A stretch of 64,000 nucleotides of DNA from Gari tellinella. Its lineage: Eukaryota; Mollusca; Bivalvia; Cardiida; Psammobiidae. Location: NCBI GenBank assembly GCA_922989275.2, contig OV277862.1, forward strand, positions 16,721,543 to 16,785,542, read 5' to 3'. The notes beneath the pieces were generated by a model that was given only the letters and a program-made list of their open reading frames with translations, did no database searches and was not told the origin of the DNA. Shown one piece after another: positions 167 to 63,660 of this stretch. Every line of letters starts with the position of its first letter. The first letter of the stretch is position 1. A program made the translations under genes and the position numbers.

Positions 167-304
167 TTATTTGGACTTAGGGAAACTGTGCTCTGGGGTG
201 GAGACAACACTTGGAGGTCTCCTGGGGTAGATTCTGCATTCTCCTGGACAGTCTTAAACAGCTTCTTGTCATTGCCAGCCATCTTACACGAATAGCTCTC
301 AATC
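167..304 (-). CDS. MAF1: MAF1 coding exon 2
   Basis: The exon begins after a ttttttcag acceptor and ends at a gtatgt donor. It encodes (R)IESYSCKMAGNDKKLF followed by a polar stretch with SPPQSTVSLSP. The open frame runs past the donor into repeat sequence ending in a stop at 97, so the last residues of that longer ORF are intron read-through. The 2-nt overhang at the donor sets the phase of the next exon, which is outside the window. IESYSCKMAG is diagnostic for Maf1; the serine/proline-rich tail matches the region that is phosphorylated in animal Maf1 proteins (family knowledge). Confidence 0.9.

Positions 305-63660: not shown

What the first reader, a model, noticed from the sequence alone, without database searches (positions are those of the whole stretch)
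167..63660. Divergent MAF1 / SHARPIN-HOIL-1 gene pair, an apparent deep-conserved synteny
MAF1 (minus) and an RBR gene with SHARPIN-like N-terminal domains (plus) stand head to head with no other gene between them. In human 8q24.3, SHARPIN and MAF1 are adjacent and divergent, only a few hundred bases apart (established knowledge, from memory). The same pairing in a probable mollusc suggests that vertebrate SHARPIN descends from a MAF1-linked gene that still has the RBR domain here. The intergenic gap has been stretched to about 32.8 kb (start codon to start codon), almost all of it transposon sequence.
Basis: partly seen in the sequence, partly recalled or inferred. Interest (0 to 1): 0.88.

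Follow-up and report, generated by a model that had tools for sequence, protein, structure and literature searches.

The report
Ancestral SHARPIN ligase beside MAF1
In a clam-like genome, MAF1 stands head to head with one gene whose predicted protein joins a likely SHARPIN-type front half to a complete HOIL-1-type ubiquitin-ligase end; the mammalian immune scaffold SHARPIN is therefore likely a shortened ligase, and its place beside MAF1 is probably older than the split between molluscs and vertebrates.

Summary
MAF1 (minus, start codon 2734) and a 13-exon RBR gene (plus, start codon 35519) are divergent, 32,784 bp apart, on one 86-Mb contig. The predicted protein (928 aa) has LTM, UBL, NZF and a full HOIL-1-type RBR with the catalytic cysteine. 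Its N-terminus is likely a SHARPIN-type PH domain: profiles of 4, 7 and 14 molluscs score 90-94%, controls under 1%; Pfam alone misses it.

Trees of LTM-UBL-NZF and of RBR put molluscs outside the vertebrate SHARPIN+RBCK1 clade, so the gene predates that duplication. New here: SHARPIN-clade proteins of sharks, fishes, frogs, reptiles and birds keep a full RBR (14 of 14 keep C460; 13 of 14 show the PH). None of 120 mammalian SHARPIN rows listed has it. SHARPIN looks like a ligase that lost its catalytic half.

The pair is known in mouse and human, so inherited adjacency is the best reading. Adjacency in other invertebrates, single copy and macrosynteny could not be tested: the genome search answered once, then stayed unavailable. 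The 32.8-kb gap makes a shared promoter unlikely here. A CYLD-type gene is a further neighbour.

The parts
2652..2734 (-). MAF1 coding exon 1 (start codon at 2734)
   Evidence: tblastn with human MAF1, E 3.6e-4; donor GTAAGC
167..304 (-). MAF1 coding exon 2; two further exons lie left of the window (L004)
   Evidence: tblastn E 3e-9; further exons
2735..35518 (.). intergenic gap, 32,784 bp, repeat-rich
35519..35785 (+). PH-HOIL gene exon 1, start codon, first half of likely PH domain
36860..37070 (+). exon 2, second half of likely PH domain
38753..39539 (+). exon 3, linker and LTM-like region
41141..41234 (+). exon 4, first half of UBL
43312..43513 (+). exon 5, second half of UBL
47280..47557 (+). 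exon 6, linker; acceptor choice uncertain (a second in-phase acceptor lies 6 bases upstream)
48569..48739 (+). exon 7, NZF zinc finger
60368..60528 (+). exon 8, RING1 start
60959..61070 (+). exon 9, RING1 end
62808..63000 (+). exon 10, IBR
63530..63660 (+). exon 11, IBR end and RING2 start; exons 12-13 (L005 779-877 and 2220-2300) carry the catalytic Cys878 and the C-terminus
49819..50028 (+). candidate alternative last exon: acceptor followed by 69 codons and a stop; would give a PH-UBL-NZF isoform without RBR
   Evidence: best match among 240 relatives E 0.10, no Pfam match: unproven

Best explanation
MAF1 and the gene facing it are likely the ancestral MAF1-SHARPIN neighbours, and that gene encodes, by its spliced prediction, a full LTM-UBL-NZF-RBR ligase with a likely SHARPIN-type PH domain that branches before vertebrate SHARPIN and RBCK1 (HOIL-1) split. 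SHOWN by sequence: domain order, conserved catalytic cysteine and RBR cysteines, position in trees of two separate parts of the protein, and PH plus RBR together in one protein in the SHARPIN clade of non-mammalian vertebrates. INFERRED history: one PH-LTM-UBL-NZF-RBR gene stood beside MAF1 in the bilaterian ancestor. A vertebrate duplication gave SHARPIN (kept PH, RBR and the MAF1 locus) and RBCK1 (lost PH, and sits elsewhere). The lineage to placental mammals then lost the RBR from SHARPIN, leaving a scaffold. INFERRED function: the mollusc protein would do both accessory jobs of LUBAC. Its UBL would dock on HOIP, its LTM and PH would self-associate, its NZF would bind Met1 chains, and its RBR would attach ubiquitin by the HOIL-1 mechanism through Cys878. 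At 32.8 kb the two genes are unlikely to share one promoter here, so their linkage is better read as inherited than as regulatory.
For: Gene structure and orientation. RBR matches a HOIL-1 structure at E 8e-105, LTM-UBL matches 5y3t_A at E 4e-16, NZF matches HOIL-1 NZF at E 2e-14. PH: profile-profile score against 195 SHARPIN PH rows is 93.6% for 7 molluscs picked for the motif, 90-91% for all 14 molluscs considered and 92-94% for the 4 nearest kin; four other segments at most 0.9%, 20 column shuffles at most 0.7%. LTM-UBL-NZF trees: vertebrate SHARPIN+RBCK1 one clade 97/96 (52 rows) and 99/98 (48 rows); molluscs+RBCK1 p-AU 4e-60, molluscs+SHARPIN p-AU 1e-85. Mammalian SHARPIN joins the PH-RBR proteins at 97/93; joining it to RBCK1 instead has p-AU 0.03. 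RBR tree, 45 rows: vertebrates one clade 99/96, non-mammalian SHARPIN 100/99; both mollusc groupings rejected, p-AU 0.0017. Of the 120 relatives listed (488 hits), 73 have a SHARPIN PH at E 1e-3 and all 120 have the GCDW catalytic motif. Cys460 and every RBR cysteine are kept in 14 of 14 non-mammalian SHARPIN-type proteins. Carettochelys has both genes, on contigs of different length (P0076, P0097). Mouse and human locus. Aplysia: one HOIL1 gene that also filled the SHARPIN entry, no separate SHARPIN (PMC9334734, passages).
Against: The PH call is indirect. Pfam PF16764 does not hit. An iterated HMM reaches Mya only at E about 0.7 and the window protein not at all. The window protein alone scores 10-15% and the other seven molluscs (oysters, Solemya, a whelk, one unnamed) only 0.4-1.3%, so the signal comes from part of the molluscs. 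A search with residues 1-175 found nothing. The AlphaFold model of the Mya relative has pLDDT 53-79 there, and the 50 rows shown by each fold search hold no PH match. In 7 of 23 invertebrate rows the PH columns are nearly empty. The RBCK1 clade is weak (82/34, 61/18; not one clade) because lamprey is unstable, so the duplication's date is open; a long-branched nemertean falls nearer the vertebrates than amphioxus does. Of the 14 SHARPIN-type proteins, Xenopus laevis shows no PH, and both frogs have Asp for His503. No transcript supports the gene model. No other invertebrate locus was seen. Human CYC1, EXOSC4 and part of GPAA1 (typed) gave no tblastn hit at E 1 in the 314 kb at hand.
Confidence: 0.77

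Rival explanations
1. The gene is an ordinary RBCK1 (HOIL-1) orthologue, and its place beside MAF1 is coincidence or a separate rearrangement.
For: Relatives in the databases are named RBCK1-like, the best solved matches are HOIL-1, and only this one invertebrate locus was seen.
Against: Molluscs grouped with RBCK1 alone are rejected (p-AU 4e-60; 0.0017). The N-terminus of the nearest kin matches the SHARPIN PH profile, a part the RBCK1 rows lack. Chance adjacency in the right orientation to the very gene that neighbours SHARPIN in mammals is of the order of 1 in 10,000 or less for a genome of tens of thousands of genes (my estimate, no call).
Confidence: 0.1
2. The PH domain was gained separately in molluscs, and in a SHARPIN lineage that later fused with an RBR; the shared order is convergence or fusion.
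For: The PH is too divergent for Pfam and for an iterated HMM, and seven other molluscs show no signal.
Against: Hemichordates, amphioxus and gnathostomes share the same PH at high significance. The RBR of non-mammalian SHARPIN forms its own clade (100/99) inside the vertebrate clade, as the UBL-NZF part does, which a late fusion would not give. The mollusc profiles are far above their controls.
Confidence: 0.08
3. The pair is kept together because the two genes share regulation (a bidirectional promoter) rather than by inheritance alone.
For: In human one integration site lies inside SHARPIN and 424 bp from the MAF1 transcription start (PMC4741842, Table 1).
Against: Here the start codons are 32,784 bp apart in repeat-rich sequence, too far for one promoter; no test of expression was possible.
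Confidence: 0.15

Closest known systems
RBCK1 / HOIL-1L (mammals)
   Same: LTM, UBL, NZF and RBR in the same order; catalytic Cys460 and the RBR cysteines conserved
   Different: The RBCK1 rows have no PH domain and form a later, vertebrate-only branch, weakly supported with lamprey
SHARPIN (placental mammals)
   Same: PH (likely), LTM, UBL, NZF; next to MAF1 and divergent from it
   Different: None of the 120 mammalian rows listed (of 233 hits, length cap 677 aa) has the GCDW catalytic motif; the human MAF1 start lies within hundreds of bases, not 32.8 kb
SHARPIN of birds, reptiles, frogs, fishes and sharks (annotated 'sharpin' or RBCK1)
   Same: PH-LTM-UBL-NZF-RBR in one protein (PH in 13 of 14 examined), catalytic cysteine and all RBR cysteines kept in 14 of 14
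   Different: Later branch; a separate RBCK1 coexists (for example Carettochelys)
Aplysia LOC101863809 (HOIL1, PMC9334734)
   Same: One gene that filled both the HOIL1 and the SHARPIN entry by domains, no separate SHARPIN; one isoform lacks the RBR
   Different: The authors read the RBR-less isoform as a possible functional analogue of SHARPIN; the passages I saw give no locus, MAF1 link or tree. The Aplysia isoform in my tree (P0020) has an empty PH region
LUBEL / HOIP of Drosophila
   Same: Linear-ubiquitin RBR ligase in invertebrates (PMC5090701, passages)
   Different: HOIP orthologue, a different subunit; flies are reported to lack HOIL-1L and SHARPIN

Membership tests
HOIL-1-type RBR ligase | RING1-IBR-RING2 with catalytic Cys (human C460) and zinc cysteines | tested here: met
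   Cys878 = C460; every RBCK1 cysteine from 282 to 509 present in the window protein; RBR E 8e-105
HOIL-1-type RBR ligase | UBL domain that binds HOIP UBA | tested here: met
   Domain present: Pfam ubiquitin 27.1 bits (cut-off 25.4), HOIL-1 UBL structures E about 1e-13; binding itself not tested
HOIL-1-type RBR ligase | NZF zinc finger | tested here: met
   HOIL-1 NZF E 2e-14; Pfam RanBP zinc ribbon 26.0 bits, just under its 27 cut-off
SHARPIN/HOIL-1 accessory subunits | LTM tethering motif before the UBL | tested here: met
   One stretch with 5y3t_A (LTM-UBL) covers 369-505, conserved columns; Pfam LTM PF25393 itself gave no match
SHARPIN | SHARPIN-type PH domain, by Pfam PF16764 | tested here: not met
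   No match at E 1 in the window protein
SHARPIN | SHARPIN-type PH domain, by profile-profile comparison | tested here: met
   90-94% for sets of 14, 7 and 4 molluscs that include the window gene; 77% with Mya and Dreissena only; 10-15% for the window protein alone; controls at most 0.9%
SHARPIN (vertebrate clade) | Branches with vertebrate SHARPIN | tested here: not met
   Rejected p-AU 1e-85 and 0.0017: it is pre-duplication, co-orthologous to SHARPIN and RBCK1
RBCK1 (vertebrate clade) | Branches with RBCK1 | tested here: not met
   Rejected p-AU 4e-60 and 0.0017
MAF1-SHARPIN divergent pair | Adjacent and head to head with MAF1 | tested here: met
   no other gene seen between (limited depth)
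MAF1-SHARPIN divergent pair | Short shared intergenic region | tested here: not met
   32,784 bp between start codons
MAF1-SHARPIN divergent pair | Same pairing in other invertebrate genomes | not testable with these tools
   No eukaryote genome other than the window's own is held
Single-copy pro-orthologue | No second SHARPIN or RBCK1 in this genome | not tested
   The genome search with this protein was asked three times and not answered

The most novel reading that the evidence does not exclude
SHARPIN is a beheaded ligase. The ancestral animal LUBAC had one accessory subunit, PH-LTM-UBL-NZF-RBR, encoded beside MAF1 since before molluscs and vertebrates parted. Vertebrates duplicated it, and sharks, fishes, frogs, reptiles and birds still carry two HOIL-1-type ligases (RBCK1 and a PH-bearing, catalytically intact SHARPIN). 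The lineage to placental mammals turned SHARPIN into a non-enzymatic scaffold, so mouse cpdm biology describes a derived state.
Probability: 0.6. Interest if true: 0.78.

Novelty: new variant of a known kind. Interest (0 to 1): 0.63.

Why it matters
LUBAC is described with one chain-forming subunit (HOIP) and two similar accessory subunits, one of which (SHARPIN) has no ligase domain; why there are two is unexplained as far as I know. If SHARPIN began as, and outside mammals still is, a full HOIL-1-type ligase, then its role in immunity and cell death must be read as what remains after the loss of a catalytic half. Chicken, frog or zebrafish SHARPIN can test this directly. The mollusc locus supplies the link: the fused gene still sits where mammalian SHARPIN sits, head to head with MAF1, which would make the pair an old animal microsynteny that survived a gap of 32.8 kb.

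Tried and rejected
Reading the RBR gene as plain RBCK1: rejected by the trees. Reading the PH as established by Pfam: not so; replaced by controlled profile-profile tests. The first of these, five molluscs against seven vertebrates, gave only 28%, and against three hemichordate/amphioxus rows 85%. The seven molluscs were picked after the motif had been seen in an alignment; the unpicked set of 14 gives 90-91%, and the seven left out give 0.4-1.3% by themselves. Single Mytilus, single Montipora and three-starfish profiles gave 1-8%. Protein search with residues 1-175 found nothing (310 candidates, none at E 10). Both fold searches with the full-length Mya model showed only UBL and RBR matches in their 50 rows; the PH part was hardly tested there. 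Human 8q24.3 neighbours CYC1, EXOSC4 and part of GPAA1: no tblastn hit at E 1 in the 314 kb at hand. The idea that 8q24.3 and 20p13 are sister regions of the vertebrate genome duplications (SCX/TCF15, SCRT1/SCRT2, SLC52A2/SLC52A3, TRIB1/TRIB3 beside SHARPIN/RBCK1) is recalled, from no call; a paper search for it listed nothing specific. Chromosome-scale synteny was planned with GPAA1 and other families and could not be run. The stage of mammalian RBR loss was not resolved: in the 120 rows listed (of 233 hits) the named ones are placental, and its length cap (677 aa) shuts out most proteins as long as a full PH-RBR SHARPIN.

Paper searches on whether this is in print (listings seen). Passages seen: PMC9334734, PMC7371178, PMC4741842 (also its section 5), PMC9084887, PMC5090701, PMC6044281, PMC5413910, PMC9527308, PMC13061254, PMC4765238; PMC2871058 was searched for MAF1, SHARPIN and RBCK1 with no occurrence. 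None of these passages states that non-mammalian SHARPIN has an RBR or that a fused gene sits beside MAF1. One says LUBAC expression is restricted to chordates (PMC4765238). Landgraf 2010 (PMC3004267, named in a reference list), which may bear on it, is not held.

Full report
What is there. The window lies on contig C7 (16721543-16785542) of a 1.6-Gb genome of 80 contigs. Its nearest relatives in the trees are Mya and Dreissena (starred three-row clade), so it is a bivalve. MAF1 is on the minus strand: start codon at 2734, exon 2 ending at 167, two further exons left of the window. Genome-wide, the Maf1 family gives two matches, both exons of this gene. On the plus strand a gene of 13 coding exons starts at 35519 and ends 2.3 kb right of the window; all introns are GT-AG and all phases agree.

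The protein. The 928-aa prediction matches HOIL-1 structures over the whole RBR (8eaz, E 8e-105), the NZF (3b08, E 2e-14) and the LTM-UBL (5y3t chain A, E 4e-16). The catalytic cysteine (C460 in human, GCDW motif) is C878 here, and every cysteine of human RBCK1 from position 282 to 509 is present. Two histidines differ (H396 and H469 are Lys here); H396 differs in 14 of 14 and H469 in 5 of 14 SHARPIN-type relatives too, while H503 is kept here but is Asp in the two frogs.

The N-terminus. Pfam does not recognise a PH domain, and an iterated HMM started from human SHARPIN recruits hemichordates and amphioxus strongly but Mya only at E about 0.7 and the window protein not at all. Pooled evidence is better. 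An alignment shows a shared motif (Y-x-x-K, then H-E) followed by a stretch that ends the domain. Against a profile of 195 SHARPIN PH rows, seven molluscs picked for the motif score 93.6% (E 2e-7), while four other segments of the same proteins score at most 0.9% and 20 column-shuffled versions at most 0.7%. Because that set was picked, I repeated it: all 14 molluscs considered score 90-91%, the window gene with its three nearest kin 92-94%, Mya alone 71-73%, the window protein alone 10-15%, and the seven molluscs left out 0.4-1.3%. The AlphaFold model of Mya shows six strands and then a helix (residues 27-156), the order expected of a PH domain apart from one strand, at pLDDT 53-79. I call the domain a likely SHARPIN-type PH; it is not detectable in every mollusc.

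Where it branches. With LTM-UBL-NZF columns, vertebrate SHARPIN and RBCK1 form one clade (97/96 with 52 rows; 99/98 with 48 rows after four long rows were dropped). SHARPIN, mammalian and non-mammalian together, is a clade (97/93, 95/93); joining mammalian SHARPIN to RBCK1 instead has p-AU 0.03. RBCK1 is a weak clade (82/34, 61/18) because lamprey is unstable; without lamprey it has 99/91. Putting molluscs with RBCK1 costs 59 log units (p-AU 4e-60), and with SHARPIN the same (1e-85). With RBR columns only (45 rows; mammalian SHARPIN has none) the vertebrate clade (99/96) and the non-mammalian SHARPIN clade (100/99) return, RBCK1 is not one clade, and both mollusc groupings are rejected at p-AU 0.0017. 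So the whole gene duplicated inside the vertebrate line, and the window gene is co-orthologous to both copies.

An unexpected result. In the homologue list, proteins named 'sharpin' from birds, reptiles and frogs, and shark and fish proteins named RBCK1, carry Sharpin_PH together with LTM and the RBR region. Of the 120 proteins listed (488 hits), 73 have the SHARPIN PH at E 1e-3 and all 120 have the GCDW catalytic motif; 4 of the 73 are hemichordates or amphioxus and one is unnamed. In 14 of 14 non-mammalian SHARPIN-type proteins aligned, the catalytic cysteine and all RBR cysteines of RBCK1 are kept; 13 of the 14 show the PH, Xenopus laevis does not. The turtle Carettochelys has both a 523-aa RBCK1 without PH and a 706-aa SHARPIN with PH and RBR. 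By contrast, none of the 120 SHARPIN rows listed for the human query (of 233 hits; named rows placental; length cap 677 aa) has the motif. The plain reading is that SHARPIN was a ligase and lost its catalytic half on the way to placental mammals. The stage of loss is not resolved here.

The neighbourhood. Mouse Maf1 lies 5' of Sharpin, with Cyc1 on the other side (PMC7371178, passages). In human one vector integration site lies inside SHARPIN and 424 bp from the MAF1 transcription start (PMC4741842, Table 1). The same adjacency and orientation in a bivalve, with a gene that predates SHARPIN, is best explained by inheritance. The gap is 32,784 bp, 44% of it repeated within the window and the eight loci then held, with no Pfam match above cut-off in its ten longest frames and no Rfam match in the window. 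Beyond the pair, a CYLD-type gene lies left of MAF1 (CYLD structure 2vhf, E 2e-17), and an RPS18-type and a TP53RK-type gene lie right. CYC1, EXOSC4 and part of GPAA1 were not found in the 314 kb at hand, so only the pair, not the wider mammalian block, is seen.

How it would work (inferred). In mammals HOIL-1 and SHARPIN dock their UBLs on HOIP and pair through their LTMs (PMC6044281, passages, and recalled). With one gene, the same protein would have to fill both places by self-association through LTM and PH, while its RBR would attach ubiquitin as HOIL-1 does. Aplysia, described with one HOIL1 gene that also filled the SHARPIN entry and one RBR-less isoform (PMC9334734, passages), fits this. 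The window holds a candidate RBR-less last exon (49819-50028), but nothing confirms it.

What remains open: adjacency in any other invertebrate, a second copy in this genome, chromosome-scale synteny, and the date of the duplication. The genome search that would have settled two of these answered once and then stayed unavailable.

Noticed in passing
C7:16644173-16659558 (L023-L024), about 55 kb left of the last MAF1 exon seen: A CYLD-type deubiquitinase gene (CAP-Gly and the start of the USP domain, CYLD structure E 2e-17) lies on the plus strand near the MAF1 / PH-HOIL pair: an eraser of Met1/K63 chains beside a LUBAC subunit. Possibly chance.
   Followed up: partly
window 60601-60990: A tandem array of period 82 (4.8 copies, 90% matches) repeats the splice acceptor and the first codons of the second RING1 exon (exon 9), giving several look-alike acceptors in front of the real exon; 82 is not a multiple of 3.
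   Followed up: no
window 49819-50028: Exon-like frame with a good acceptor, 69 codons and a stop between the NZF and RING1 exons; it could be an alternative last exon giving a PH-UBL-NZF protein without RBR, as reported for one Aplysia isoform.
   Followed up: partly
L006-L007 (C7:16797516-16806903): RPS18-type and TP53RK-type genes on the minus strand follow the PH-HOIL gene.
   Followed up: partly
window 6202-6849 (-): 216-codon open frame in the gap that reads by eye like the end of a non-LTR retrotransposon reverse transcriptase; Pfam gave no match.
   Followed up: partly
fish and shark rows: PH-bearing SHARPIN orthologues of fishes and sharks are named RBCK1 in public annotation, which hides the two-ligase state.
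   Followed up: partly
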